Positions 34,420 to 48,703 of a DNA stretch of 64,000 nucleotides are shown here, one piece after another; within the stretch, counting starts at the first letter, position 1, and every line of letters begins with the position of its first letter. This stretch comes from an uncultured Candidatus Binatia bacterium (GTDB taxonomy: Bacteria; Desulfobacterota; Binatia; Bin18): positions 62,001 through 126,000 of the forward strand of contig OY282457.1 of the NCBI GenBank assembly GCA_958296235.1. Direction: 5' to 3'. A program made the position numbers and the translations under genes. The notes under the pieces were generated by a model. That model was not told where the DNA came from. It made no database searches and saw only the letters and a list, made by a program, of their open reading frames with translations.

Positions 34420-34881
34420 TCAGGGAGAAGGACGCTCCTCGACTGTCTCCTTGCGGCTGGCAACATAGGCGGCCATGAGTCCTGGCAGGTCAATAGGCGA
34501 CTCTGTTTCTCTGAGCTTGCCGCCGGGTGGGATAATTTTATCCGACCCGCCAAGTGAGATCAGGACATAGGGGCCGCCGAGCAAACCCTTGGTCTGAACG
34601 GATGCGATCGCGTCTTCTTGAATTTCAATATCACGGTCTATGGTGAAGCGGACTCTCGCCCGCGCGCCCGTGAGCTGGACGGTATCAACCCGGCCTACGC
34701 GGACACCGGCGACCTCGACAGGAGTGCCCGGTCCCAGGCCGGTGGCACTTTCAAAGTCCGCATAGATGGTATACCCCCAGGCGTTATAGAGCACGGTTTC
34801 TCCGAGTGACGAGAACAGATAGAACGCACTTGCGGTTCCAAGAATCAGGAAACCAACGACGCTGAGGCCGATCCGTTGCAT
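34420..34881 (-). CDS. MlaD-type (MCE domain) lipid-transport protein
   Basis: The start MQRIGLSVVGFLILG (ATG 34881) gives 153 residues: one N-terminal membrane anchor, then one MCE domain (YTIYADFESATGLGPGTPVEVAGVRVGRVD ... TKGLLGGPYVLISLGG). MlaD binds phospholipid in the periplasm as the substrate part of MlaFEDB. The usual mlaE/mlaF neighbours are absent, so this is an orphan copy or the rest lies elsewhere. Confidence 0.86.
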   Translation of the reverse strand: MQRIGLSVVGFLILGTASAFYLFSSLGETVLYNAWGYTIYADFESATGLGPGTPVEVAGVRVGRVDTVQLTGARARVRFTIDRDIEIQEDAIASVQTKGLLGGPYVLISLGGSDKIIPPGGKLRETESPIDLPGLMAAYVASRKETVEERPSP

Positions 34882-34966
34882 GGCCTGACAGCCTAGCAGA
34901 CCACCCCTTATCTCCCAAGACCCTCCACCCATTCTCATGGCAGATACGCTGGCTCTCCAAGGGAAT

Positions 34967-35875
34967 ATGAAAAACGCAGGCGAGAAGCGCTTTGGGCAGC
35001 TTCTTTGTTTTGCGCTTCTTTTCTGTAGCTTTTTATTCGGTCATCTCCATAATGTCCGGGCCGATACTACAGCCCTGGTCGCCCAGGGGCAGTATGTCTT
35101 TGCCCTAGCCGGCGGATGTGGCTGCCATACCGCGGATGCGGGACCCGCCAACGCCGGCGGGCGGCCGATTGAAACCCCCTATGGGCGATTTTACGGGACG
35201 AATATTACGCCTGACCCAGTTCACGGCATTGGGACCTGGACGGACCGGGAAATCATCGACGCGATCCGGTTGGGGGTGAAACCTGATGGGACGGTCATGA
35301 GTCCGGTCATGCCATACCCGGCCCTGAGCGGCATGACGGATGCAGATGCCACGGCGCTGGTTGCTTTCCTGCGCAGCCGTGCGCCCGTCGCGCAGGAAAA
35401 CCTCCCCCACGAGGTCGGCATTCCATTTTCTGGACTGGCCATGCGTGTCTGGCGCTGGCTGTTTTTTGAACCGGTTACAACTCATGCCACAGCTTGGACG
35501 GACCCCATTGCCCGAGGCCGCTACATCAGCGAACATCTCGCCCATTGCCAAGAGTGCCATACGCCGCGCACCGTGTTTGGCACTCTTGACCGGACGCGCG
35601 ATCTAGCCGGGAATCCAGCTGGCATTGACGGCGAGGTCGCGCCCAATATTACCCCGGATGACGAGACGGGTATCGGACAGTGGAGTGAGGGAGATATCGT
35701 TTCCCTGCTGCGCACCGGCTTTCTCCCGAATTTTGATAACGTCCAAGGGCTGATGGCGGTAGTGATTGATGGGGTCCCCGGAGGCGGATACAAAGACATG
35801 ACGGATGAAGATGCCTACGCTGTTGCCGCATATCTGAAATCGGTTGCTCCAAGGGAGCAGGCAGAAGCGGAATAG
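34967..35875 (+). CDS. Diheme cytochrome c
   Basis: The start MKNAGEKRFGQLLCF (ATG 34967) gives 302 residues with a signal peptide. Two cytochrome c domains follow the pattern of alcohol-dehydrogenase-type or sorbitol-dehydrogenase cytochromes (GTNITPDPVHGIGTWTDREI and APNITPDDETGIGQWSEGDI). The second heme site is canonical, CQECH; the first reads GGCGCHT, that is C-x-C-H. It should accept electrons in the periplasm; a dehydrogenase partner is not seen. Confidence 0.85.
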   Translation: MKNAGEKRFGQLLCFALLFCSFLFGHLHNVRADTTALVAQGQYVFALAGGCGCHTADAGPANAGGRPIETPYGRFYGTNITPDPVHGIGTWTDREIIDAIRLGVKPDGTVMSPVMPYPALSGMTDADATALVAFLRSRAPVAQENLPHEVGIPFSGLAMRVWRWLFFEPVTTHATAWTDPIARGRYISEHLAHCQECHTPRTVFGTLDRTRDLAGNPAGIDGEVAPNITPDDETGIGQWSEGDIVSLLRTGFLPNFDNVQGLMAVVIDGVPGGGYKDMTDEDAYAVAAYLKSVAPREQAEAE

Positions 35876-35906
35876 CGTGGAGCTTGCGTAAAAAGGAGGT
35901 AGTGCA

Positions 35907-36404
35907 ATGAAAGGGATAGTGATCCGTGTGGTTCGTGGGGTTTTGATCAGCGCCAGTGTGATGGCAGGCGGGCTGCATACTATGGGTGGGCTGAGTTTCG
36001 GGCATGAAAACCACCCCACCCAGATGCCGGACCCGCAGCAGACGGTGGCGTTTCGCACCTATCTGATGGAGAATATCGGGGCCAACGCCAAGGAGATGAA
36101 GGGCAAGATCGATGCCGGTAAGCTCTCAGAGGCAAAAATGAATGCGGCTGCCATAGCCCTTCATTCCACCCGCATCGCAGCGCTCTTTCCTGAGGGCAGC
36201 ACGTCGGACGCCTCTCGGGCAAAAGAAGAAATCTGGCAAACCTGGGAGGCTTTTCTCGCCTCAGCCACAGTGCTGAGTACGGAAGCGAACGCGCTGACCG
36301 TGGCGGCGGGAGAAAATAATGCCACCGCAGTCAAAGAACATATGCAAAAGATGTTCGGGACGTGTAAGGGCTGTCACGACCAGTTTCGCAAGCCGGAGGA
36401 ATAA
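35907..36404 (+). CDS. Cytochrome c'/c556-like protein
   Basis: AAAAAGGAGG precedes ATG 35907; the protein is 165 residues with a signal peptide. Four amphipathic helices lead to the C-terminal heme motif CKGCHDQFRKPEE, the layout of the cytochrome c'/c556 four-helix bundle. It lies 32 bases behind the diheme cytochrome and is probably co-expressed. Function could be electron transfer or gas/radical handling. Confidence 0.86.
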   Translation: MKGIVIRVVRGVLISASVMAGGLHTMGGLSFGHENHPTQMPDPQQTVAFRTYLMENIGANAKEMKGKIDAGKLSEAKMNAAAIALHSTRIAALFPEGSTSDASRAKEEIWQTWEAFLASATVLSTEANALTVAAGENNATAVKEHMQKMFGTCKGCHDQFRKPEE

Positions 36405-36484: not shown

Positions 36485-37774
36485 GTGTCCGGTGCTATTG
36501 GGTTCCAGGCGCTGACAAGCCGTAATGCCGTGCTGAGCAGCGCAGAAAATTTTATCCTGTACCTGCTCATGGAGACCAAGCCGCAGGGTGGGGGCGTGCG
36601 CCTGCCGCTCAATCTTGGCATTGTCCTTGACCGTAGCGGTTCGATGTATGACGAACAGCGGCTTGATTACGTCATTGAGGCCATCAAATATCTGATCGAT
36701 AATCTTGGCCCGGATGACAAGGCCGCGGTGGTCGCGTTTGCCGACCGGGCGGAAGTTGCGGCAACGGCAGACCAGGTCGCGACTGAGGCCGCCAGGGTGA
36801 AACGGACGATTGACGATCTCGATCTTCTGGAAATTGGGGGCGGAACACAAATGGCGCTGGGCATGGAAGCGGCGCTTGCCGAGGTGGAGAAGTATTATTC
36901 ACCGAACCGCCTGAACCGGCTGCTGCTCCTGACCGACGGTCAGACGTATGAGGAGCGCAAATGTCTGGAACTCGCCCGCCAACACCGGGCGCGTATTTCG
37001 TGCAGTACGCTCGGGGTGGGGATCGAGTTCAATGAAAAATTGCTAATGGAAATGGCCGAGGAGAGTGGCGCCAATTATCACTTGATCGATACCCCGACCT
37101 CCATTCCGAATATTTTCTCCAGTGAACTCCAGGGACTGCGGAATGTCGCCCTGACCAACGCGCGTATTGAGATGCAACTCAGCGCGGGAGTGCAGGTGAA
37201 AGAAGCCTTTCGCGCCAGTCCTCAGATTTACCCCATAAAAGAGATTACGCCCGACGCCAACCGGACGCTTTCCCTGCCGTTGGGAGATATTGAAGCTGGA
37301 ACGCCAAGCTCAGCCTTAGCCGTACTCGTCTTGCCGCCCCGCCGACCCGGCCGGGTACGGTTGGCGCGGGCTGAGCTGTCTTACGATACGCCCGAGGCAA
37401 AGAACCAGCGCGAAAGCGTGGACATTGTGGTGAATTATACGCTTGAGCGTTCGGATATTGGCCGGGCAAACGGCTATGTGATGAATCTGGTCGATCAAGT
37501 CAGTGTCGCCAAGATTCAGATGCAGGCTGAGGCGGCTATGGCTGCCGGCAACACGGATAAAGCCACGCGGCTGTTGGGTAATGCCATAGCCGGCACGCAA
37601 CGTCTGGGGAATACGAAAGCAACCCAAGCGCTGGAGGGGCTCCAGAGTGAGTTGAAGAAGACCCAGAGTCTTGCGACCGGGGCTGCCAAGACCCAGCTGC
37701 TCAGCGCTCAGGCAACCCTCCGAAAAACGCAGCAGCTTGATCCTGAAAGCGTCAAGGATGCGCTCCGGGATTAA
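36485..37774 (+). CDS. Cytosolic von Willebrand factor A domain protein
   Basis: AAAGGAG six bases before GTG 36485 sets the start (429 residues). LNLGIVLDRSGSMYDE is a full MIDAS (D-x-S-x-S) and GGGTQMALGM and LLLTDGQTYEE supply the remaining metal residues. There is no signal peptide or membrane helix. The C-terminal third is beta-rich and then a helical Gln/Ala/Thr region (LQSELKKTQSLATGAAK). It opens the kinase/phosphatase/FHA cluster and may be a scaffold or substrate binder. Confidence 0.85.
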   Translation: MSGAIGFQALTSRNAVLSSAENFILYLLMETKPQGGGVRLPLNLGIVLDRSGSMYDEQRLDYVIEAIKYLIDNLGPDDKAAVVAFADRAEVAATADQVATEAARVKRTIDDLDLLEIGGGTQMALGMEAALAEVEKYYSPNRLNRLLLLTDGQTYEERKCLELARQHRARISCSTLGVGIEFNEKLLMEMAEESGANYHLIDTPTSIPNIFSSELQGLRNVALTNARIEMQLSAGVQVKEAFRASPQIYPIKEITPDANRTLSLPLGDIEAGTPSSALAVLVLPPRRPGRVRLARAELSYDTPEAKNQRESVDIVVNYTLERSDIGRANGYVMNLVDQVSVAKIQMQAEAAMAAGNTDKATRLLGNAIAGTQRLGNTKATQALEGLQSELKKTQSLATGAAKTQLLSAQATLRKTQQLDPESVKDALRD

Positions 37775-37812
37775 GCTCTACCCCAGATGTAGCCCATGAA
37801 GGAGATGTGCGC

Positions 37813-38466
37813 ATGATTCGCTGTGCGGAATGCAATGAAGAAAATGTGGATGGCCTGGAGTACTGTGATAGCTGCGGAGCGAAACTCGAAGTGATAGCGA
37901 CGGAAGCCGTGGTCGCCGATGCCCCCGACAGCCCGGCCGCAGAGGAGGCTCCCGCCGAAATTGAGGCCAGTGCGGAGACCGCGGCAGAAGAAGCCACGCC
38001 TGAGCCGGCTGAGCCTGAGACCGCTGAAGCTGAGGGCGAGGAGCGCGCGGAGGCGGCTGGAGATGAGCCCCCAGAGCCGGCGGCAGAAGAAGCCGTGCCT
38101 GTCGCCGCCGCTCTCAGCGAGGAACGGGAAGCGGTCGGCAGCGCTTCGCTCACTATCACCCGCGGTGGCACGGTGGGGAAAGTCTTTGAGCTCCAGGCCG
38201 GAGACAATCTGGTTGGTCGGTGGGACCCGGATTCCGGTTCTTTTCCTGAGGTTGATATGGAAAACGATGACCCGGAAGCGCGGATCTCTCGCAAACACGC
38301 GCTGATAAAGTTCGGGACCGATCTGACGATTGAAGATATCGGGAGTCTGAACGGGACGTTTGTCAACCGGGGCCAACGTCTTGAGCCGGGCTCGCCCGCC
38401 CCTCTCAAGGATGGAGACGAGATCATCATCGGCAAAACCTTTTTTAAGGTGGCGCGCGTGCAATGA
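37813..38466 (+). CDS. Zinc-ribbon and FHA-domain protein
   Basis: The start MIRCAECNEENVDGLEYC (ATG 37813) gives 217 residues. Two C-x2-C knuckles (CAEC, CDSC) form an N-terminal zinc ribbon, an Ala/Glu/Pro-rich linker covers about residues 35-110, and an FHA domain occupies 115-217 (NLVGRWDPDS, ISRKHALI, SLNGTFVN). The FHA Arg, Ser, His and Asn that bind phosphothreonine are present. It probably reads the product of the kinase downstream. Confidence 0.86.
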   Translation: MIRCAECNEENVDGLEYCDSCGAKLEVIATEAVVADAPDSPAAEEAPAEIEASAETAAEEATPEPAEPETAEAEGEERAEAAGDEPPEPAAEEAVPVAAALSEEREAVGSASLTITRGGTVGKVFELQAGDNLVGRWDPDSGSFPEVDMENDDPEARISRKHALIKFGTDLTIEDIGSLNGTFVNRGQRLEPGSPAPLKDGDEIIIGKTFFKVARVQ

Positions 38467-38525
38467 GGCGCCGCCGGCCGTTCTGGACGTGGCGAAACTG
38501 AGCGCCTTGAGTAGACTGGTGATGC

Positions 38526-40232
38526 ATGGCTTCTGCGCCGCTGATGACCGAACAGAGAGACCTTGAGGAGCGCTGTGTTTGTGTCGAGTGCGGACAGGCC
38601 AATAGCATCGGCGAAACTTTTTGCGCCGCCTGTGGCGTAGCGCTTGAAGAAGCAGGGGAGAGGGAGTCGGCCGCCCCTCTCGAACCGTTGCCCATCGGCA
38701 CCGTTCTGGCTGATACTTATCGTCTGACCACACTCCTAGCGACTGGACAGGAAAATCGTTACCGGGCGGTTCGTCAGACTGACGAAGACCGGCCCTACCT
38801 CATAGCGGAACGGGCGAGCGACCAGACCGCTGCCCATCCGGGTGGCGCGTTTCGGTTGTTCGAGCAGCTTGCCGAGATTCATCATCCGGCCCTGATCCTC
38901 CCCCAAGAACGTTTTGAACGTGACGGCCGAGTCTATCTCATTACACCGAGTCAGTCCGGTCTCCCACTGAGTCAGCGTATTGGCCGGACATCGGAGCGGG
39001 AGGCGGCCGGCTGGGGGGTCCAGTTATGTCAGGCCGTGGATGTTTTGCACCGGCATGGACTCTTATGTGTCGAACTGCCCCCGGAAAATATCCTGCTCGA
39101 CAAGACGGGCCGGCTGCGCCTCATTCAATTCGACGCGATCCGTCTCAAGGACACAGTTGAGGAGAGTCCCGTGCTGACAGACGGCTATGCCGCGCCCGAG
39201 GCATACAAGGCCCAGGTATTAAATGAAGCCGCAGATGTGTTTGCGCTCGGCGCCTGTCTGTATGCCGTTCTGGTGGGGCGGCGTTTGCCCGTTGAGGGCT
39301 GGGCGGTTCAGCCTGAGCCACCTGTATTCTATCCTGAGAAAGTTCTGACTCCCGAGTGTGAGCGCATTTTAAGCAGGGCGTTGGTCCTTGAGAGCACCGA
39401 ACGCTATGCGGACTTGGAAGCGCTGAAACATGATTGGCTTGCGCTGAGCCAGTCTACGTACATCCGTTCGGCCTGGCAGACCGATGTCGGACAGGTGCGC
39501 GACCATAATGAAGATGCCGTTCTGGTCAAAGAGGTCGGGCAGGGCAGTATAGCCGGTGATGATTTTCGGGGGCTGTATATTGTGTCAGACGGGATGGGTG
39601 GAGCCGAAGCCGGTGAGGTCGCGAGCCAGCTCGCCATTCAGACGGTCGCGCGCCAGGTCGAAGCAGCCTGGGCTGAGAGTGAGGCAAAAGAGGAAGGGGA
39701 CGCAGCTGCCTGGGAGATCTGTTTGCGTGAGGCGGTTGCGGCGGCCAATGCCCGGGTGGTCCAATACGGAAAAGACCATCCCGAAGCGGCCGGCCTGGGG
39801 GCTACGATCGTTGCCGCGTTGATCCAGGCGGGACAACTGGCGCTGGCCTGGGTCGGGGACAGTCGGGTCTATCTGCTGGAAAACGGAGTGTTGCGCCAGC
39901 TCTCGCACGATCATTCCCTGGTTGCCCGGCTGGTCGAAATCGGCCAACTGACGGAAGAAGAGGCACTGACTCACGAGCACCGCAACGTCCTGATTCGGTC
40001 TTTGGGCAGCAAGGAAAACGTCAAGGTTGATACGCTCTCGCGGCCGCTGAAGCGCGGCGTCCGCCTCCTCCTGTGCAGCGATGGGCTGACCAGCCATGTG
40101 CTTGATCCGGCGATCGCCGATATTATGAGTCGCCACCGGACTCCGCGCGAGGCCGCCTTGGAACTGACTGTCGCGGCCAATACCGCCGGCGGCAGCGATA
40201 ATACCTCGGTGGTGGTTGTCTTTCACGAGTAG
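38526..40232 (+). CDS. Zinc ribbon-pseudokinase-PP2C phosphatase fusion
   Basis: The protein has 568 residues in three parts. Residues 17-38 form a zinc ribbon (CVECGQANSIGETFCAACG). Residues 55-305 are kinase-like, but the VAIK Lys is Ala (YLIAERAS), HRDLKPEN reads CVELPPENILL and DFG reads QFD, so it cannot transfer phosphate. From about 320 a PP2C domain has DHNEDAV, VSDGMGG, WVGDSRVYLL, CSDGLT and GSDNTSVV, all metal ligands intact. It should remove phosphate from Ser/Thr, with the dead kinase as sensor or adaptor. It ends 13 bases before the active kinase gene. Confidence 0.92.
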   Translation: MASAPLMTEQRDLEERCVCVECGQANSIGETFCAACGVALEEAGERESAAPLEPLPIGTVLADTYRLTTLLATGQENRYRAVRQTDEDRPYLIAERASDQTAAHPGGAFRLFEQLAEIHHPALILPQERFERDGRVYLITPSQSGLPLSQRIGRTSEREAAGWGVQLCQAVDVLHRHGLLCVELPPENILLDKTGRLRLIQFDAIRLKDTVEESPVLTDGYAAPEAYKAQVLNEAADVFALGACLYAVLVGRRLPVEGWAVQPEPPVFYPEKVLTPECERILSRALVLESTERYADLEALKHDWLALSQSTYIRSAWQTDVGQVRDHNEDAVLVKEVGQGSIAGDDFRGLYIVSDGMGGAEAGEVASQLAIQTVARQVEAAWAESEAKEEGDAAAWEICLREAVAAANARVVQYGKDHPEAAGLGATIVAALIQAGQLALAWVGDSRVYLLENGVLRQLSHDHSLVARLVEIGQLTEEEALTHEHRNVLIRSLGSKENVKVDTLSRPLKRGVRLLLCSDGLTSHVLDPAIADIMSRHRTPREAALELTVAANTAGGSDNTSVVVVFHE

Positions 40233-40245
40233 CGAGGCATTGTCG

Positions 40246-42621
40246 ATGTCGCGGAATGAAAGCGGTCAACTCGAACCCGGAACGGTCCTGGCGGGTCGGT
40301 ATCAGATTGAGCGTTTTCTTGCGGGTGGCGGGATGGGCGTCGTCTATGTCGCCCAGGATCAGCGTCTGGCTGAGAGACAGGTCGCCATCAAAGAAATTTT
40401 TGACCGATTTACGAATCCCGAAGAACGCGCCCAGGCCATTGAGTATTTTCATCGCGAGGCCGACACGCTGGCCCAGCTTACCCATCCTGCCATTCCCGCC
40501 ATTTTCGACCGTTTTGGTGAAGGCAATTGCCATTATTTGGTGATGGATTTTGTCGAAGGGGTCAATCTGGAGCAGGAAATCGCCGGACTGGGCGGTCAGC
40601 TCCCCGAGAGCCGGGTCATCGAGATTGGCCGGGAGCTGTGCGACGTGTTGACCTATCTGCATGGCTTTTCTCCGCCAATCATTTACCGGGACATGAAGCC
40701 GGGCAATGTGATCCTCCGGCCGGACGGGCGCATCACGCTGATTGACTTCGGCATTGCCAGAATTTTCTCTCCCCAGGGTAAAGCCACCCTGATTGGCACG
40801 CCTGGCTTTGCCCCGCCCGAGCAATACTCGGGACAGGTCGATGAGCGGTCCGATCTGTATGGCCTGGCCGCAACCCTGCACTATATCCTGACCGGGCGTG
40901 ACCCGGAGAAGCACCCGCCGTTCTCGTGCCCGCCGGTGCTTTCGGAGAAGCCTGACGCTTCTCCTTTCCTCGCCCAGGCGATAGACCAGACCCTGGCGTA
41001 TAAAGCGGAGGAGCGGCCAAAGAGCGCGGAAGCGTTTAAGGACATGTTTCTGTATGGGCGCGGACTGGGCGCGGCCCCATCTCCCAGCTCGTCCCAAGCC
41101 GCGACCCAGATTCTCGAGCCTTTGCCGGAGCCGGTTGAGGAACCCCTCACCGTCGCACCGCCACAAAAGAAACGGCGCTGGGGACGGCTGGCTGCGACCC
41201 TGGTTTTTTTGCTGCTGCTGACTGGTGGGGCGTATGGATTGTTCACTTCCCCTGAGTTGCTACAAGGCAATCCGGTCACGCGCGTGGGAGAGAAAATACC
41301 GTGGCAGCAGATTGAAACTTGGCTGCCAGAATCTCAGCGTGAAAGGTTTCGGGCGTTTGTTGCGGATTTACCCTGGGAGCGGGAGAAACGGTTGCGCACG
41401 CTGCGGGCCGACCCGCTCGAACTGGTTTCTCTCAACTTGCTGAATACCTCGCGCGATGGCACGCCGCTGTCGGAAGCTAAGGAAAGTTATACGGTTGGTG
41501 AAGTGCAATACCTGACCTGGGAAGTGGTGCTGAAAAACAAGCTGTTTGAGGTCGAAGGCGGGAATCATCGACTGGAAGGCCGATTTTTCGACCCTGAGGG
41601 CGGCCTGGCCGGGAAAAGCGAAGCCGGTCGGTTTGTCCGACCCGAAGAAGAACAGCTTGAGCTGCGGGGCGTGACCCTCATTGAGGGGCTCAAAGAGCGG
41701 GCGACCGGCGATTATCAGCTTGAGCTCTACCTTGGGGATGCCAAGCTGGCCAGTCAAACAGTCCAGATAGAAGCCGACCGGGTCAGCGTAGCAAAGGCTG
41801 ACGCCGAAGAAGAAGGTGGTATAGCCGGTGGGGCTGATGGCTCAGCCTCGGCGCCTTCCCCAGCCGCGATAGAGGAAGAGCGCAAACGACGCGCTGTGGA
41901 GGCCAAGCGGCTGGCACTTATCCAGGAACGGAGCAAGGAACCGCTTGATCTCCTCTCTGTCCGCTTTTTTAATACGGCGAAAGATGGCAGACGCCTTTCT
42001 CAGCCAGCGTCTTCGTTTGGCGCATCGCAACTCCGGTTCGTAGCCTGGGAGGCCGATTTTCAGAACCAACTCCATGACCTGTTGTCTTCTCACCACCGGG
42101 TCACCGCAACCTATTTTGCCCCCAATGGTCAGATTCTTGGGACGGTTGAAGACGGAAAAGAAGTGTCGGATACAACAGAGAAGGTGACGTTTACCGCCAG
42201 AATCGGCAATGCCAGTGGAGGCGCCTTTCTCCCAGGCGACTATCGGGTTGACTTTTATGTCAATGGCTACCCGCTCTCGTCCAGAAAATTCAGCGTAAGG
42301 GATGATCGGGACTTGGCCCGTATCCTCAGCTCGCACCAAGGGAGCATCCTCGGGCTCGGTCCTGAGCGTGAGGCGCTGCTTGAAGCGCATTTCCAACCGC
42401 ACAGTAATGGAGCCTTACGTGGCCGCCTGGTGATTCACGCGCACGGCTTTGGGGCCGCCTCTCTGGAAGGAGCGACGCAGGGCAACCAGATTGAGTTTGC
42501 CAGTAAGGTTGGCAATCGCGTCTATCATTTCCAGGGCTGGCGTGAAGAAAATTGGCTCAGAGGAACCTATCGTGTCGGGTCGTCCGAGGATATGAGCGGA
42601 AATTGGTCACTGCAACTCTAG
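40246..42621 (+). CDS. Transmembrane Ser/Thr protein kinase with duplicated sensor module
   Basis: The start MSRNESGQLEPGTVLAGRY (ATG 40246) gives 791 residues. The kinase domain (about 10-280) is complete: LAGGGMGVVY, VAIKEI, YRDMKPGNVIL, LIDFGIA and GTPGFAPPEQY. One membrane helix lies near 313-332 (LAATLVFLLLLTGGAYGLF). Outside are two copies of a roughly 120-residue module, one beginning PLELVSLNLLNTSRDG (about 388) and one PLDLLSVRFFNTAKDG (about 565), then a final beta domain. A charged linker joins the copies. It is the writer for the neighbouring FHA readers. Confidence 0.93.
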   Translation: MSRNESGQLEPGTVLAGRYQIERFLAGGGMGVVYVAQDQRLAERQVAIKEIFDRFTNPEERAQAIEYFHREADTLAQLTHPAIPAIFDRFGEGNCHYLVMDFVEGVNLEQEIAGLGGQLPESRVIEIGRELCDVLTYLHGFSPPIIYRDMKPGNVILRPDGRITLIDFGIARIFSPQGKATLIGTPGFAPPEQYSGQVDERSDLYGLAATLHYILTGRDPEKHPPFSCPPVLSEKPDASPFLAQAIDQTLAYKAEERPKSAEAFKDMFLYGRGLGAAPSPSSSQAATQILEPLPEPVEEPLTVAPPQKKRRWGRLAATLVFLLLLTGGAYGLFTSPELLQGNPVTRVGEKIPWQQIETWLPESQRERFRAFVADLPWEREKRLRTLRADPLELVSLNLLNTSRDGTPLSEAKESYTVGEVQYLTWEVVLKNKLFEVEGGNHRLEGRFFDPEGGLAGKSEAGRFVRPEEEQLELRGVTLIEGLKERATGDYQLELYLGDAKLASQTVQIEADRVSVAKADAEEEGGIAGGADGSASAPSPAAIEEERKRRAVEAKRLALIQERSKEPLDLLSVRFFNTAKDGRRLSQPASSFGASQLRFVAWEADFQNQLHDLLSSHHRVTATYFAPNGQILGTVEDGKEVSDTTEKVTFTARIGNASGGAFLPGDYRVDFYVNGYPLSSRKFSVRDDRDLARILSSHQGSILGLGPEREALLEAHFQPHSNGALRGRLVIHAHGFGAASLEGATQGNQIEFASKVGNRVYHFQGWREENWLRGTYRVGSSEDMSGNWSLQL

Positions 42622-42690
42622 GCTGGGTTATGATGACGGTTTCCGGCATAGGGGAACGTGGGGCATTGAGCAGACTTTGAGTGGAGCAGC

Positions 42691-43581
42691 ATGGAGCTTT
42701 CACGCGAACGACTTGTCCTGTATAGCGGGGCTGGGCTTCTGGGCGGTCTTGCCGGCTGGGCCGCGGCTGACCCGTTGGCCGCGGTGGGGAATGTCTATCT
42801 CCGGGCTATGGCCCTGGGAGGGGCGACCGGTATTTGTGTTGGCGCGTTTATGGGTGCCATTGAAGGGTTGAGCGCCGGGCATAAGAACAAGACCTGGCAA
42901 GGTGTGAGGCTGGGTAGCATCGCCGGTCTGGTGGGTGGGGCGGTCGGTCTCCTCATGGCGGAGCTGGTGTTTGGCCTGTTTGGCCGTCTTAGTGGGCGTG
43001 TTATAGGCTGGGGAATTTTCGGGCTTGCCGTCGGGCTGGGAGCCGGCTGGGTCGGCCAATCGTTAGTCCGTTTACGCAATGGCGCGATAGGCGGTTGCAT
43101 CGGCGGGGCCATCGGGGGCGCGCTCTTTCAGATTGTTACCTCCCTCCTTTCGCAAACGGCTGGCCTTGGGGTTGCCTTGGCCATCCTGGGGGCCATGATC
43201 GGTCTCTGGATCGGTCTGGTCAGTGAGATATTGAAGCGCGGCTGGTTTATGGTGATTCGCTCGCAAAGTCGCAACGCCCGTGAGGGCCGTGAATATCACC
43301 TGACCAAGCCCAAAACGACAATCGGCCGAGCCGAAGAAAGTGATGTCGGCCTGTTTGGCGACCGGTCCGTTGCCAACCTGCATGCGGTGGTCGAAAAACG
43401 TCAGAACACCTTTGTGCTTGCCAAAAACGAAGGGCAGGTCAGCGTTAATCGAATTCCAGTCACCCAGCCCGTCCAACTGAAAAACGGCGACCGGGTCGAG
43501 GTCGGCGGAACCTTGCTCCTCTTTCGAGAGCGTGCAGGCAAGGAGGAAGCCGGCCGGACAGCAGTGTCAGGTGGAGAATAG
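42691..43581 (+). CDS. Polytopic membrane protein with C-terminal FHA domain
   Basis: The protein has 296 residues. The first 190 are glycine-rich hydrophobic helices (LYSGAGLLGGLAGWAAADPL, GICVGAFMGAIEGL, LAILGAMIGLWIGLV), perhaps five or six spans. The C-terminal FHA domain runs from about 195 (REYHLTKPKTTIGRAEESD, ANLHAVVEKR, GQVSVNRIPV). It has Arg and His but Asn of the SxxH pair in place of Ser, so phosphate binding may be weaker. The next gene starts two bases later. Confidence 0.86.
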   Translation: MELSRERLVLYSGAGLLGGLAGWAAADPLAAVGNVYLRAMALGGATGICVGAFMGAIEGLSAGHKNKTWQGVRLGSIAGLVGGAVGLLMAELVFGLFGRLSGRVIGWGIFGLAVGLGAGWVGQSLVRLRNGAIGGCIGGAIGGALFQIVTSLLSQTAGLGVALAILGAMIGLWIGLVSEILKRGWFMVIRSQSRNAREGREYHLTKPKTTIGRAEESDVGLFGDRSVANLHAVVEKRQNTFVLAKNEGQVSVNRIPVTQPVQLKNGDRVEVGGTLLLFRERAGKEEAGRTAVSGGE

Positions 43582-43582
43582 C

Positions 43583-45133
43583 ATGAGACTGAAACGTCCC
43601 CCTCAACAGAGCGCTATCCGAGCTGTGGGTGTGTTCCTCTATTGCCTGGCCTGCTGCTCGTTTCTGGCATCTCATGCCTCTGCGGCAGATTCAGTGGTCG
43701 TCTCTGTCACCAACCCCCAACTGGAGAATTTTACCAATGGCGGCGCGGTTGGCCTGTATTTTAATGCGACCGATTTGCGCGGGCAGCCGATCGGACAACT
43801 CACGCCGGAGCATGTGACTGTGCAGGAGGACGGGCAGGACACCCAGATCATTGATTTCCGAGGCGAACAACAGGGCCGGCCGGTCGATATCGTGGTGGTC
43901 TTCGATGTCACGGAAAGCATGGGGCCGTTCATTGACGGCATGAAAGAAGCGGCCATTGATTTTGCCGAGCGTCTGGCCAAGGCCAATCGGGATTATCGCT
44001 TGGGCCTGGTTACTTTTGAGGATTACGTGATTCGGGACGAGCGGGAATTCACCCGGAGCGCCCGGGAGTTCAAAAGCTGGGTTGGCGCGCTGCGCCCGAC
44101 CGGCGGGGGAGATATTCCAGAGAACTCTCTCGATGCCATGTTGCTGGCCAGCCGCTTTCCGTTTCGGCCCGACGCCCAGGCTGTCATCATCCTGATTACC
44201 GATGCCCCCAATCATACGCGTGGGGACGGCTCGGAAAAAAACAATCCCTACGGTCGGGAGGTCACTCAACTGTCGGGCGCGGAAGTATTGGCCGAAATCA
44301 AAAAGGCAAATCTGAACGTCTATGCGATTTCTCCCCCGCCCTTTATGGCTCCCGACCTGTATAAGATCGCAAAGGAGAGCGCCGGGCGGCATTACAATAT
44401 TGTCAGTGAGGGCGAACGCTTTCCTGAGCTGATCGGTGAGATCGGCCGCTCGCTCGCGTCGCAATATTTTCTGACATATACCAGCCCTCGCCCGGTCGAG
44501 GATGGGGCGGAACGTGAAATCGTGCTGACCCTTCAGCACCCGAATGGGGAAGGGGAGGCGCGCGCGTCCTATCAGGTGCGTGGGATTGCTGGCGCGCGAG
44601 TCGTCTCAACCAACTCAGGACCGGGGACCACCCACCCGCAAACCGTTATTGCCTATGGGGCGTGGAATATGCTGGTTCCGCTCTTGGCCGCCGGCGGACT
44701 GCTGCTGCTGGCGCGCGTCCGGCTTAACGAGCTCCCAGCCGAAGTGCTGAGTCTGGTGAAGACGGCAACCGCGGGTCCCAGTTCCACGAGCCAAAACCCA
44801 CCCCTGGACCCTGTTGTGCCGAAGAACTCCGTACCGTACGCCCGACTTGTGCGCCAAAGCCCGTTTGAAGACGCGCCGCGCGAAATTGCTTTTTCCCGCG
44901 ATGAAATGACGTTTGGCCGTGGAGAAGAATGTGAAGCAATGATTCTCCACTCGTCCATATCGCGGGAACATGCGCGTATAAAAAAGGTCAAACAGGGCTA
45001 TGTGCTGCTCGATTTGCAGAGCAGAAACGGCATCCACATCAATGGCAAAAAGGTTTCCGAAAATCTGCTCAGAGATGGCATGCAGGTTCGTATCGGGGAT
45101 GTAGAGTTTATCTTCTACGCCGCAAATACGTAA
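43583..45133 (+). CDS. Exported VWA protein with transmembrane segment and cytoplasmic FHA domain
   Basis: ATG 43583 gives 516 residues with a signal peptide ending SHASA-AD. The periplasmic VWA domain has DIVVVFDVTESMGPF (MIDAS with D-x-T-x-S), TGGGDIPENSL and ILITDAPNH. A membrane helix near residues 370-390 (WNMLVPLLAAGGLLLLARV) precedes a cytosolic FHA domain (MTFGRGEECE, SSISREHARI, QSRNGIHINGK) with a full phosphothreonine site. It can couple an outside metal-dependent adhesion domain to phosphorylation inside. Confidence 0.88.
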   Translation: MRLKRPPQQSAIRAVGVFLYCLACCSFLASHASAADSVVVSVTNPQLENFTNGGAVGLYFNATDLRGQPIGQLTPEHVTVQEDGQDTQIIDFRGEQQGRPVDIVVVFDVTESMGPFIDGMKEAAIDFAERLAKANRDYRLGLVTFEDYVIRDEREFTRSAREFKSWVGALRPTGGGDIPENSLDAMLLASRFPFRPDAQAVIILITDAPNHTRGDGSEKNNPYGREVTQLSGAEVLAEIKKANLNVYAISPPPFMAPDLYKIAKESAGRHYNIVSEGERFPELIGEIGRSLASQYFLTYTSPRPVEDGAEREIVLTLQHPNGEGEARASYQVRGIAGARVVSTNSGPGTTHPQTVIAYGAWNMLVPLLAAGGLLLLARVRLNELPAEVLSLVKTATAGPSSTSQNPPLDPVVPKNSVPYARLVRQSPFEDAPREIAFSRDEMTFGRGEECEAMILHSSISREHARIKKVKQGYVLLDLQSRNGIHINGKKVSENLLRDGMQVRIGDVEFIFYAANT

Positions 45134-45168: not shown

Positions 45169-47211
45169 CTAGCGATACAACTCCTCGTGTTTGACCGTGT
45201 GATCCGGCAGACGAATACGCGGGTAGAGTGAGGGCAGGCCGTTGCGGCCGAGGAGGAGGAAGTCAACCGGCACGAGTGGCATGGGGACTTCGAGGCCGAC
45301 ATAGCTGCTGAACTGATCTCTGCCAAATGCCAGGCGGGTACCGAGGATGTCTTTGGGCAGCGTCCCCCGGACATCGAACCCTTCTCCCAGACTTCCGGTG
45401 AGATGGGGAAGAACCCGCCAGCCGTCTTCGTCGTTTTTTTCAAACTGACTCTTCAGGGTGATATCTGCGGGTTCCGCCCCTTGAACCAGTTTGGCAATTT
45501 CCCGGTCCCCACGATAGCGGGCGTCTTCATAGCCCTTTTCGCGGAACTTGCGCCAGAACTGCTGCCACGACGCGGTGGGCACCCCATATACTTTGGGGCG
45601 AGGGCCGGTGTCGCTCTCCAACAGCAGAGTAATATCGCCATGTGGGGAGAGGATGATGCCGTCGTCCGTGAGTTCAACGTTCCGCCAGTTGCCATCATAC
45701 AGTTCTCTTTTGAGTCCCAGACCCTGAGCGCCAAACAGGTCCGGGTTGTCGCGCAGGAACATTTTGCTGAGCTGTAAGCCTTGGTTTTCAGGCCGACTGA
45801 GCTGTTGAAACTCTTTGGCCGCTTCTTTGGCCGCCTCAGTCTTGGGATAGTTCTCCAGCAGGCGACGCAGGTAGGCCTGCTTGTCCGTTTGATGCGAACT
45901 GGCTTTGGCTTGTTCAAGCAGGGCTTCTGCCGCGTTTTCCTGGAGCTTGGGAATCTCTTCTTCCATGCCAGCCAGCGCGTAATACTCAATGGATTTCTCA
46001 ATACGGCCTTCCTTGGCATAGGCTTTGGCGAGGATGGGATAGATTTCTGGAGCGCGTTCCTCCGGGGGGGTCTGCTGCACGTATTTTTCGCCCTCGGTAA
46101 TAATTTTTTCTTGAGAGATGGCTCGTCCGGTCATGACGTGCCAGAGCTTTCCCAAGGTCTGGAGCATGGTCAGCCCACCAAAGGTTGCCGCGCCGACCAA
46201 CCCCTCGGTGCCGAGTTGGAGGCCGGCCACAACAATATTGTCTTTGACAAAACCACTCCCCGGCAGCATATAGGTCAAGGTTTCTTTGCTGTGCTCCCAC
46301 TCTGCCTGTTTCACGCCGGCAAGCGGGTCTTGGGGGGCCTCCGGGTCGTGCTGGGTGAGGGCGTCATAGTGTTGCAGGCGGGACTCGACCTGCCGGACCC
46401 CGGCCTTGGCCTTTTCAGCGTTTTCGTCAACCAGCAGGGCGAGCTGATAATGGAAATTGGCCTGCCAATAGTCTTCTGCAGAGAATGCCTGCTCAGCCCG
46501 GGCTAACTCCGCCTTGACAAGGGCTTTTTTTCGTTTCGTATCCAGGGCTTCCATTTTGGCCTGGACTTCTGGAGCCCGCGGGTCATGCGGGGCTTGTTCG
46601 AGGAAACGCCGATACAGGGCCAGGGCTTTTCGTTCTCGGGGCCCTGGGCCTGAGCGCTGGCCAGCCGAAGAGACAATGCCTTGCGCGGCGTATGGGCTCG
46701 GACTGGCGGGAGCGCCAAGAAACAGCCGGGCCACGTCAAATGTCGAGAGCGCCCAATTGAATAGCCGGGCCACTCGGTGCCGTTTTTCCGAGGCGTAGAG
46801 CTGGTCTGCCTGGGCGAGCAGCTCATCCGGCGTCGCGTTCAGTTCCATAAGCGGCAGCTCCTCCTGCCCATCCTGCTCTATTGACCGGTACAGCAGGGCA
46901 TACACCAGGGGGGTGACGCCGGTTGCCTCCTCTCCCTGCGCTTGGCGGTGCGTGTCCTGTTGCGCCAGTTGAATGATCCGGCCGCGTAATGCTGACGGGT
47001 CTTGCAGATAGCCATCAATAATCGCGTCGGCAACGTGTCCGCCGACCTCATCCGGAAAATATCGCTCTGGAGGCAGCGGGGGCACAAAGGGATTATAGGC
47101 AGGCAAAAATTCCGTCAGCCGCTGGGCTAAGGGATCGGCGAAATCCCGAGCGTGCAGGGGTGCCGCGCACACGAGCTGGCAGCACAGGAACAGAGGGATG
47201 AGATACCACAT
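45169..47211 (-). CDS. Exported TPR-like protein of unknown function
   Basis: The protein has 680 residues with a signal peptide (LIPLFLCCQLVCA-APLH). Helical repeats include ALALYRRFLEQAPHDPRAPEVQ, YWQANFHYQLALLVDENAEKA and YPILAKAYAKEGRIEKSIEYYAL. A hydrophobic stretch near 330-370 (LQLGTEGLVGAATFGGLTML) may touch the membrane. The last 150 residues are a beta-rich domain. It is convergent with the VWA/FHA gene and follows the lipoprotein gene by 21 bases. No family is recognised. Confidence 0.75.
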   Translation of the reverse strand: MWYLIPLFLCCQLVCAAPLHARDFADPLAQRLTEFLPAYNPFVPPLPPERYFPDEVGGHVADAIIDGYLQDPSALRGRIIQLAQQDTHRQAQGEEATGVTPLVYALLYRSIEQDGQEELPLMELNATPDELLAQADQLYASEKRHRVARLFNWALSTFDVARLFLGAPASPSPYAAQGIVSSAGQRSGPGPRERKALALYRRFLEQAPHDPRAPEVQAKMEALDTKRKKALVKAELARAEQAFSAEDYWQANFHYQLALLVDENAEKAKAGVRQVESRLQHYDALTQHDPEAPQDPLAGVKQAEWEHSKETLTYMLPGSGFVKDNIVVAGLQLGTEGLVGAATFGGLTMLQTLGKLWHVMTGRAISQEKIITEGEKYVQQTPPEERAPEIYPILAKAYAKEGRIEKSIEYYALAGMEEEIPKLQENAAEALLEQAKASSHQTDKQAYLRRLLENYPKTEAAKEAAKEFQQLSRPENQGLQLSKMFLRDNPDLFGAQGLGLKRELYDGNWRNVELTDDGIILSPHGDITLLLESDTGPRPKVYGVPTASWQQFWRKFREKGYEDARYRGDREIAKLVQGAEPADITLKSQFEKNDEDGWRVLPHLTGSLGEGFDVRGTLPKDILGTRLAFGRDQFSSYVGLEVPMPLVPVDFLLLGRNGLPSLYPRIRLPDHTVKHEELYR

Positions 47212-47232
47212 GCCGCTTTCTTTCCGGGCGGC

Positions 47233-48486
47233 TTAGCGGCCTAAACGTCCAACCTTGGCCATATAGGCTTCAAGCGCTTCGAGTTTGCCCTTGGCTTCAA
47301 GTTTTTCCATAATGCCGTCCTGTTGCGCAACCGCGGCGTAATGCTGGAGCGCTGCTCGTCCGAGGGCTTCAAAGATGTCCGCATCAAAACGTAAACTTTC
47401 CGGATCGTTCTGGGCCGTATATTCATGGGCGAGGGTGACGTAGAAATCACCTAACTCCAGCCGATACCGATAGCGGTTTTTGCTCTCCCGGTGTTTATCA
47501 AGCAACTGTTGATAGGCCAGGATAACGCTCTCGTTGCCATCCTCGATGCGGTAGCGGTTGAGGATAAAGAAAGCGACTTTCGCCCGCTCCAGCCGCTCTT
47601 CTTCTTCCTGTGCCAGGGAAGCATAGGGCGTGTTGTCATACTGCTGAGCGAGGTCCCGCCATTGTTGCGCCTGTTCGTCCAGCGCCTGCATATACTCCAC
47701 CGCGGTGGTTGCCGTCGGTATCTGTTGGGCGAGCGACTGAAAGGCGGTGAGCGCTTCGACTGCTTGCCCTGCCTGTTGTTTGAGTCGGCTTTTACCCTGG
47801 GCGACGCGTTGGTACTCGGCCAAGGCCCGTTCATAGGCGTGCAGCCCTTCATACGCCCGACCCCGAGTGAAGGCGATAATGGCGGGATAGGCGCCGGGAT
47901 GCTTGGTTTCATAATCGTTGATGCGGGTGAGTGTGGCCTTATGCACATTAGCTCCGGTCACATCTTTAGGAAGAGGAAAGCGGTAGGTGTCTTTTGTCGC
48001 CACGCGCTGAAACTCGGCGACAACCTTGAGGAGGTCCTGCTCGGTCCGGTACTGCGCACTGCCGTTTGGACCTGAATCGTCGGCAGACAGACCCGGTACC
48101 CAGGTGAGCCAGCCCGAGGATGCTCCTGCTTGGGCTGGACCAAGCGCCGGCAGGGGCGGCAGGGGCTCTTCCGGCTGGGCCGGCGGCAGTTCGGGCGGAG
48201 CGGCCTGGGCCGGTGGAGGAGACGGAGGGATGAGGCCCGTTGCATCGACGCGGGCTAAAAACTCCCACGCCAATTCTGCCTCTGGATCGTCTGCTTCTGC
48301 TGTTTTTTCCTGTGGTGCAGGCGGCAGGTCTGAGGGAACGGCAGCTTGTACGGGCTCATCATTGATAAGCGGGGGAGGGCGCTTCGCCCTGCAGCCGGCG
48401 ATGAGCAGGCCGGCGCCGACCACGCAAAGCCAGAAAATCAGGCTGACAGAAAATGCTCTGGTCGTGTCAGGATAGCGACGTAACAT
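47233..48486 (-). CDS. Lipoprotein with TPR-like helices
   Basis: The start MLRRYPDTTRAFSVSLIF (ATG 48486) gives 417 residues. GAGLLIAGC is a lipobox, so Cys about 32 should be acylated. A Pro/Ala-rich linker (residues 45-125) leads to helical repeats (EGLHAYERALAEYQRVAQGKSRL, YNRYRIEDG-type pairs). It is upstream of the exported TPR-like gene and probably in the same operon. Confidence 0.78.
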   Translation of the reverse strand: MLRRYPDTTRAFSVSLIFWLCVVGAGLLIAGCRAKRPPPLINDEPVQAAVPSDLPPAPQEKTAEADDPEAELAWEFLARVDATGLIPPSPPPAQAAPPELPPAQPEEPLPPLPALGPAQAGASSGWLTWVPGLSADDSGPNGSAQYRTEQDLLKVVAEFQRVATKDTYRFPLPKDVTGANVHKATLTRINDYETKHPGAYPAIIAFTRGRAYEGLHAYERALAEYQRVAQGKSRLKQQAGQAVEALTAFQSLAQQIPTATTAVEYMQALDEQAQQWRDLAQQYDNTPYASLAQEEEERLERAKVAFFILNRYRIEDGNESVILAYQQLLDKHRESKNRYRYRLELGDFYVTLAHEYTAQNDPESLRFDADIFEALGRAALQHYAAVAQQDGIMEKLEAKGKLEALEAYMAKVGRLGR

Positions 48487-48703
48487 AGCTCTATGAAGTA
48501 TAGCCGGCCGCAGCCGTTCCATCCGTTCGGATGTCGGCTGACTGCCCACAGACTCGTTACCAGCTTAAAGTGGGAAGCACGGCGAGTCAAAGGCGGATAG
48601 TCAAGAACCTGGAAGCGACGAGTACAGGGCAGGCCGGAGAAATTGCGGTTGTCTGGAGCAAATGATACAGACATGCGGTGACATACTGACGAGGGGGAAT
48701 CGC

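What the first reader, a model, noticed from the sequence alone, without database searches (positions are those of the whole stretch)
36485..45133. Six-gene kinase/phosphatase/FHA/VWA envelope signalling cluster
The cluster encodes an active membrane kinase, a PP2C, three FHA readers and two VWA proteins (one inside, one outside). All are on one strand with small gaps, and no secretion-system genes are present. The zinc ribbon is shared by the FHA protein and the phosphatase. The set looks like a complete signalling circuit that I cannot match to a described system.
Basis: partly seen in the sequence, partly recalled or inferred. Interest (0 to 1): 0.8.

Follow-up and report, generated by a model that had tools for sequence, protein, structure and literature searches.

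The report
Bacterial ArnA–ArnB-like phosphoswitch operon
Six neighbouring genes in an uncultured bacterium look like a complete on/off switch run by protein phosphorylation: the core pair resembles a motility switch known from archaea, here packaged with its own kinase, phosphatase and cell-envelope parts.

Summary
The six genes are real, co-directional and conserved: A (VWA), B (zinc ribbon-FHA), C (zinc ribbon-kinase-like-PP2C), D (membrane kinase) and E (multi-TM-FHA-like) recur in order in two Binatia families. F (outside VWA-TM-FHA) is adjacent in one family, unlinked in the other, and fused to E in two genomes. No T6SS sheath gene was found. Corrections: E's FHA lacks pThr-binding residues; C holds a pseudokinase. 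The cluster can be matched. Counterparts of A-D sit together on cyanobacterial and Deinococcus plasmids. Among solved structures B's best sequence match is ArnA, and A matches the ArnB/vWA2 fold family. ArnA-ArnB is the archaeal pair in which a zinc-ribbon-FHA protein binds the multiply phosphorylated C-terminus of a VWA protein. A's C-terminal tail carries six conserved T-x-x-[LIM] sites; three of them recur in all three phyla. Best reading: D phosphorylates A's tail, B docks on it, C resets it, and D/E/F couple this to the envelope. The ArnB_C family itself is not matched, so membership is only partly met. New variant of a known kind.

The parts
36485..37774 (+). Gene A: cytosolic VWA protein, ArnB-like layout (VWA 43-211, then beta region and helical C-terminus)
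   Evidence: Pfam VWA 2.6e-16; profile A3 hits 4fx5_A 5.8e-22 and 8s05_A 2.5e-17 over most of their length; GTG start behind AAAGGAG
37565..37738 (+). A C-terminal tail, residues 361-418, with six T-x-x-[LIM] sites: T361, T371, T380, T393, T403, T415
   Evidence: 6 of 10 tail Thr vs 1 of 17 before the tail fit the motif in the window protein; the six motif Thr are the ones conserved in >=93% of 15 Binatia proteins
37807..38466 (+). Gene B: zinc ribbon - low-complexity linker - FHA (ArnA-like); ATG alternative two codons in
   Evidence: FHA 2e-14; GR/SRKH/NG and CxxC-CxxC in 15 of 15 orthologues; best PDB match ArnA 5a8i_A 1.1e-18
38526..40232 (+). Gene C: zinc ribbon - pseudokinase - PP2C phosphatase
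   Evidence: Pfam; Stp1/IreP model 230.4 bits, cut-off 230; pseudokinase residues
38862..39440 (+). Pseudokinase region of C (residues 113-305)
   Evidence: Pkinase 7.3e-20; DFG Asp, beta3 Lys, HRDxK Lys absent in 10 of 10 aligned
39477..40220 (+). PP2C domain of C (residues 318-565)
   Evidence: RxxNED, DGMGG, GDSR, SDG, GG[ST]DN in 14 of 15 orthologues; G200 is interrupted
40246..42621 (+). Gene D: Ser/Thr kinase - juxtamembrane linker - TM - extracytoplasmic beta domains
   Evidence: Pkinase 8.4e-30; catalytic residues; TM
41104..41115 (+). Juxtamembrane TxxL motif of D (T287-L290)
   Evidence: TxxL motif in the same linker of 14 of 14 D proteins whose linker was examined; G211 fragment not assessable
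41263..42618 (+). Extracytoplasmic part of D: two repeated Ig-like beta domains and a C-terminal beta domain (putative sensor)
   Evidence: AF2 model pLDDT 61.7, pTM 0.35, weak; no PDB sequence relative below E 0.3
42691..43581 (+). Gene E: glycine-rich multi-TM domain - degenerate FHA-like domain
   Evidence: FHA 2.3e-8 and Yop-YscD_cpl 6.3e-10; TM; Gly-Arg and His kept, Ser and Asn-Gly lost
43532..45133 (+). Gene F: signal-type segment - extracytoplasmic VWA - TM - cytosolic FHA (start codon uncertain)
   Evidence: Pfam; MIDAS DVTES and GR/SREH/NG; fused to E in G208 and G211

Best explanation
The operon encodes a bacterial ArnA-ArnB-type phospho-switch with its own writer, eraser and envelope parts. 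Kinase D, through its extracytoplasmic beta domains and with the membrane partners E and F, responds to an envelope signal and phosphorylates several threonines in the C-terminal helical tail of VWA protein A (T-x-x-L/I/M sites). B, held loosely through its zinc ribbon as ArnA is, docks its FHA domain on the phosphorylated tail, giving a tight A-B complex that exposes or hides A's MIDAS site to an unknown output partner. The PP2C of C, scaffolded by its zinc ribbon and pseudokinase, removes the phosphates. F's FHA may bind phosphorylated D (juxtamembrane TxxL) or A, linking the outside VWA to the switch. Shown here by computation: genes, domains, motif residues, conservation, E-F fusion, relationship of B to ArnA and of A to the ArnB fold. 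Inferred: every phosphorylation, binding and signalling step.
For: Order A-B-C-D-E in families f1 and f5. E-F fusion in G208 and G211, topology compatible. F kept where C is kept though unlinked in f5: both present in all six f5 genomes fetched. B's profile: ArnA 5a8i_A and 8s05_C rank first and second of 177635 distinct PDB sequences, with zinc-ribbon and FHA stretches, above OdhI/GarA; control: F's profile ranks ArnA 26th. A's profile: 4fx5_A and 8s05_A over ~350 positions, vWA2 5a8j_A 9e-13; none of these is among the 60 rows shown for F's profile. Tail motif: 121 TxxPhi among 205 tail Thr in 22 proteins, 37.7 expected by shuffling; 51 among 436 Thr before the tail; conserved Thr coincide with motif Thr. 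[quoted passage not shown] tightening by ArnC, zinc finger contact (PMC12852372 passages). Eleven of 11 plasmid records with >=80% of A also carry a C match within about 3.6 kb.
Against: A tail-only profile does not find ArnB at E<=1; it finds designed helical proteins (1.1e-8) and 4fx5 weakly (0.29). Pfam ArnB_C is not matched by any of 10 A proteins nor anywhere in the genome, while the Sulfolobus control is. The placing of T361/T371/T380 on ArnB T344/T354/T363 rests on one full-length HMM alignment. The 22 proteins are not independent, and the cyanobacterial shuffles are borderline (0.015-0.053). OdhI and GarA are close behind ArnA as matches of B. The model of A is useless (pLDDT 39.3). 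No phosphorylation data exist. Five of 15 same-family relatives lack a full C. No consistent output gene was found.
Confidence: 0.6

Rival explanations
1. A TerY-P-type triad (VWA + PP2C + kinase), as in E. coli yegL-pphC-yegI, with extra FHA genes: a stress or anti-phage module.
For: Same three enzyme/VWA classes; kinase + zinc ribbon, PP2C and standalone vWA are described as a gene set (PMC7159879 passage). A has weak vWA-TerF-like similarity 1.3e-4, below cut-off.
Against: No significant blastp match of A, C, D to YegL, PphC, YegI (best E 0.024); no PADLOC hit for A, B, E, F, and for C and D only generic kinase/phosphatase models. No other Ter genes were searched for.
Confidence: 0.12
2. 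A PpkA/PppA/Fha-type post-translational regulator of a secretion or surface machine: the FHA domains of B, F and perhaps E switch an envelope apparatus directly.
For: Kinase-PP2C-FHA logic; E and F membrane FHA proteins; PpkA itself has a VWA (PMC1262709 passage).
Against: VipB/TssC absent from the genome, control E. coli found; TagH 28-33 bits vs cut-off 120; no machine genes adjacent in the loci looked at. Other envelope machines were not excluded.
Confidence: 0.15
3. A general STPK/PP2C/FHA cluster of the PknB-PstP-GarA/OdhI kind, in which B inhibits a metabolic enzyme when unphosphorylated and A is only a scaffold.
For: B's FHA resembles OdhI (8.8e-18) and GarA (9.2e-17) nearly as well as ArnA; NCBIfam OdhI 47 bits.
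Against: OdhI model far below its cut-off of 200; PknB_PASTA model matched only in the kinase part. The constant neighbour is a VWA with a Thr-rich tail, not a dehydrogenase; zinc ribbon as in ArnA.
Confidence: 0.1

Closest known systems
ArnA-ArnB motility repression module of Sulfolobus (with kinases ArnC/ArnD and phosphatase PP2A)
   Same: Zinc ribbon-linker-FHA protein beside a VWA protein; B's best PDB match is ArnA; A matches 8s05_A, taken to be ArnB because its LIETT/SIETT segment fits the numbering in PMC12852372 with an offset of 2; Thr-rich C-terminus.
   Different: Here kinase and PP2C are in the same operon, the kinase is a membrane protein, a PP2C-pseudokinase fusion replaces PP2A, two membrane proteins E/F are added; ArnB_C family not matched; bacterial; output unknown.
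VWA-FHA-PP2C-kinase clusters on cyanobacterial and Deinococcus plasmids (annotated, apparently unnamed)
   Same: A-B-C-D in the same order in Tolypothrix and Nostoc linckia, A-B-C in Trichormus, with extra genes between C and D in Gloeothece; VWA-kinase-FHA-PP2C in Deinococcus; E-like or F-like membrane genes upstream in Tolypothrix, Trichormus and Gloeothece.
   Different: 26-31% identity in A; zinc ribbon is on the kinase there and on C here; the Tolypothrix kinase carries TPRs, not an extracytoplasmic domain.
TerY-P triad
   Same: VWA + PP2C + kinase classes.
   Different: No sequence match to YegL/PphC/YegI; FHA, zinc-ribbon-FHA and envelope VWA added.
PpkA/PppA/Fha1 of T6SS
   Same: Kinase, PP2C, FHA logic.
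   Different: No T6SS sheath gene in the genome.

Membership tests
ArnA-ArnB module | Zinc ribbon-linker-FHA protein homologous to ArnA | tested here: met
   Profile A4: 5a8i_A 1.1e-18 with two stretches, best of 177635 sequences
ArnA-ArnB module | VWA protein with the ArnB/vWA2 three-domain layout | tested here: met
   Profile A3 aligned over 44-389 to 8s05_A (2.5e-17) and 47-401 to 4fx5_A; by sequence only, the fold model failed
ArnA-ArnB module | ArnB_C (PF18677) C-terminal domain | tested here: not met
   0 of 10 A proteins, 0 in own genome, control Sulfolobus positive; tail-only profile misses ArnB
ArnA-ArnB module | Multiple phosphothreonines in the VWA C-terminus bound by the FHA | not testable with these tools
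   Candidate TxxPhi array only
ArnA-ArnB module | Controls archaellum expression | not tested
   Bacterium; output unknown
TerY-P triad | Sequence relatives of YegL (VWA), PphC (PP2C), YegI (kinase) | tested here: not met
   Best blastp E 0.024 for D-YegI, A-YegL 0.50
T6SS post-translational pathway | T6SS structural genes | tested here: not met
   VipB PF05943: 0 in own genome
PknB/PstP/GarA type | PASTA kinase and GarA/OdhI equivalog | tested here: not met
   PknB_PASTA model 173 of 450 bits, kinase part only; OdhI 47 of 200

The most novel reading that the evidence does not exclude
An ArnA-ArnB-type switch, studied experimentally in Sulfolobales, is a widespread signalling module of bacteria. 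It is encoded with its own kinase, pseudokinase-PP2C eraser and integrin-like extracytoplasmic VWA, and written in a shared Thr-x-x-Leu/Ile code conserved from Binatia to Cyanobacteria and Deinococcus, giving outside-in signalling across the bacterial envelope.
Probability: 0.4. Interest if true: 0.75.

Novelty: new variant of a known kind. Interest (0 to 1): 0.62.

Why it matters
It would turn a set of clusters annotated only as 'VWA / FHA / PP2C / kinase' in several phyla into one testable signalling system with a structural precedent. It would also extend ArnAB-type multi-phosphorylation switching to bacteria, whereas the 2026 ArnAB paper says ArnB-like architectures elsewhere are mostly not involved in such processes (PMC12852372, Discussion). 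The predicted phosphosites, reader and eraser can be tested directly, including in the laboratory species Deinococcus radiodurans, which has the cytosolic set.

Tried and rejected
T6SS link: rejected, no VipB in genome. TerY-P: considered from memory (that yegI/pphC/yegL are its E. coli example is recalled), no sequence match and no PADLOC support. PRK14559 (phosphatase model): only the PP2C part aligned, below cut-off. FraH as the zinc-ribbon-FHA precedent: recalled, the search gave nothing usable. AlphaFold model of A failed (pLDDT 39.3); model of D's outside part was weak (61.7) and Foldseek gave only generic Ig-like matches, TM-scores 0.44 or lower in the rows shown. Tail-only profile against PDB did not find ArnB. 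Output gene from neighbours: flanks differ between families f1 and f5. Window B alone in plasmids found only actinobacterial FHA genes, not the cyanobacterial or Deinococcus B genes, which are recognised by position, architecture and blastp 27-37%. Promoter scan of the operon was near chance.
Full report
WHAT IS THERE. Six + strand genes lie at 36485-45133: A 429 aa VWA; B 219 aa zinc ribbon-FHA; C 568 aa zinc ribbon-kinase-like-PP2C; D 791 aa from ATG 40246, kinase-TM-outside domains; E 296 aa multi-TM-FHA-like; F 533 aa signal-type segment-VWA-TM-FHA. The window is bases 62001-126000 of a single-contig 4.62 Mb genome whose nearest named relatives are Candidatus Binatia/Binatota MAGs at 87-90% identity in F. 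Genes G and H (45169-48549) run the other way.

ACTIVE SITES. D keeps the beta3 Lys, YRDxKPxN and DFG in the five D sequences of the motif alignment. C's kinase-like domain lacks the DFG Asp, beta3 Lys and HRDxK Lys in 10 of 10 aligned; the HRD Asp itself survives in 6 of 10. C's PP2C motifs are all present in 14 of 15; in G200 the gene is interrupted by a stop. B has GR, SRKH, NG and two CxxC in 15 of 15. F has MIDAS DxTxS in 15 of 15; SRxH in 13 of 15 by the pattern used, and in G208 and G211 the pattern failed, G208 having SAEH by eye. E keeps Gly-Arg and His but not the Ser of SxxH nor the Asn-Gly in the orthologues aligned, G200 being cut off there (the 'NG' and the G211 'SAGH' printed by the pattern lie elsewhere in the protein).

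CONSERVATION. One search covered 98 genomes with C, the own one included. Of the 97 others, 6 of 6 same-genus, 4 of 9 other same-family and 14 of 14 family-f5 genomes have a C match of E<=1e-100, 24 in all (counted by me from the listing; 'f1' and 'f5' are the tool's labels). I fetched stretches from 9 f1 genomes and 6 f5 genomes, chosen because they had hits. In f1, six show A-B-C-D-E-F on one contig (G198, G201, G203, G206, G207 with A cut at the contig start, G208 with E-F fused); two are consistent but cut by contig ends (G200, G211); G205 gave only a 3.6 kb contig with E-F. In f5, 6 of 6 show A-B, then a second kinase hit and an FHA hit, then C-D-E, with F on another contig; in L104 the extra kinase and FHA hits lie in one ORF. 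F at E<=1e-90 is in 39 of 41 f5 genomes (my count; exceptions G290 and G297). In the phylum sample of 198 genomes, full-length A (E<=1e-90) is in 4: G000, G121, G149, G068. So the module belongs to certain lineages and is not universal.

FUSION. In G208 (782 aa) and G211 (801 aa), both of genus g150, E and F are one ORF; in G208 F's signal-type segment directly follows E's FHA-like end. In Tolypothrix a single protein joins an outside VWA (40% to F, E 7e-20) to a glycine-rich multi-TM region (33% to E, E 0.001), and Gloeothece has a separate E-like gene (E 2e-6) beside a VWA-multi-TM protein. E and F therefore probably act as one membrane unit (inference).

OTHER PHYLA. tblastn of A on 72,556 plasmids gives 52 records, 11 with >=80% coverage; all 11 also have a C match near by (several are near-identical plasmids). 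Read in annotation: A-B-C-D in Tolypothrix and Nostoc linckia; A-B-C in Trichormus; A-B-C-kinase/FHA-hypothetical-D in Gloeothece; A and C-D either side of the origin in Nostoc ATCC 53789, where genes crossing the origin are not listed and B was not seen; A-D-B-C in D. radiodurans (B split in the annotation), Deinococcus QL22 and D. wulumuqiensis. A is 26-31% identical to these over ~400-450 positions; C aligns through its pseudokinase into PP2C.

THE ARN LINK. Profile B (A4) against PDB sequences: ArnA 5a8i_A 1.1e-18 and 8s05_C 1.3e-18 first, then OdhI 8.8e-18 and GarA 9.2e-17; of the three alignments shown, the two ArnA ones cover both zinc ribbon and FHA. OdhI and GarA are close behind, so the FHA alone is not decisive. 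Profile A (A3): 4fx5_A 5.8e-22, 8s05_A 2.5e-17, 5a8j_A (vWA2) 9e-13. [quoted passage not shown] PMC12852372 (passages and Discussion) reports the ArnAB co-crystal, the zinc finger contact, rapid phosphorylation of T353, T363 and T375, and loss of early ArnA binding in T353A/T354A and T359A/T363A. I take 8s05 to be that complex because chain A carries LIETT and SIETT at the published spacing with an offset of 2; the PDB entry names it only 'Conserved protein'. In the alignment window T361, T371 and T380 fall, without gaps between them, on ArnB T344, T354 and T363, each followed at +3 by L or I. Control: F's profile gives mycobacterial FHA and integrin beta first; ArnA is 26th and ArnB/4fx5 are not among the 60 rows shown.

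THE TAIL CODE. In the window protein 6 of 10 tail Thr have L/I/M at +3, against 1 of 17 before the tail; a fraction 0.0024 of 5000 shuffles reach 6. Across 15 Binatia, 5 cyanobacterial and 2 Deinococcus proteins: 121 motifs among 205 tail Thr, expected 37.7; before the tail 51 among 436. In Binatia the six motif Thr are conserved in >=93%, the four others in <=80%; T403 is Thr in 22 of 22, T371 in 21 and T380 in 19, these three reaching all three phyla, while T361 and T415 are Thr in 15. D's juxtamembrane linker also has a TxxL in 14 of 14 assessable sequences. That FHA domains often read the +3 residue is recalled. Against this: cyanobacterial shuffles are borderline; a tail-only profile does not reach ArnB; ArnB_C is not matched.

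MECHANISM. See Best explanation. Which protein senses what, and what A-B then does, are open. D's outside part is two repeated beta-sandwich-like domains plus a third beta domain, from a weak model, with no informative structural match.

NOVELTY. Full-text searches for a described bacterial system of this make-up found none, in an open-licence library only. Papers seen as passages: PMC1262709, PMC7159879, PMC7744417, PMC10470591, PMC6509490, PMC12088040, PMC6213207; passages plus Discussion: PMC12852372; all others as search listings. I file it as a new variant of a known kind: it works like ArnAB, membership only partly met.

Noticed in passing
window 34420-36404: MCE/MlaD-like gene (name from inspection only), a cytochrome c-type gene and a cytochrome c' gene precede the operon in several family f1 loci but were not found in the f5 loci.
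   Followed up: partly
window 45169-48549: Two convergent TPR-type genes are kept downstream in the genus and G207 but not in G206, where CaiB-type genes follow F.
   Followed up: partly
L104:5828-7579 and L135:9754-10956: A kinase-FHA fusion gene sits inside the cluster both in family f5 and in Gloeothece.
   Followed up: partly
L112, L113, L114: In G079, G124 and G159 a kinase, a PP2C and (next to it) an FHA gene or FHA hit form a different compact cassette.
   Followed up: no
L131, L132, L135: Cyanobacterial clusters also carry a serine hydrolase gene and, in L131 and L135, ARC6/PARC6-family genes upstream.
   Followed up: no
L099 (G200:C67): C is interrupted by an in-frame stop between two halves, assembly error or pseudogene.
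   Followed up: no
L149:13033-14616: In D. wulumuqiensis the cluster lies next to lexA and pprA DNA-damage genes; ArnA represses damage genes in Saccharolobus (PMC10470591 passages).
   Followed up: no
f5 orthologues of C and B, e.g. L104: Low-complexity linkers carry a conserved KTAEL (C) and, in several, PTGEI (B), again T-x-x-[LI].
   Followed up: no
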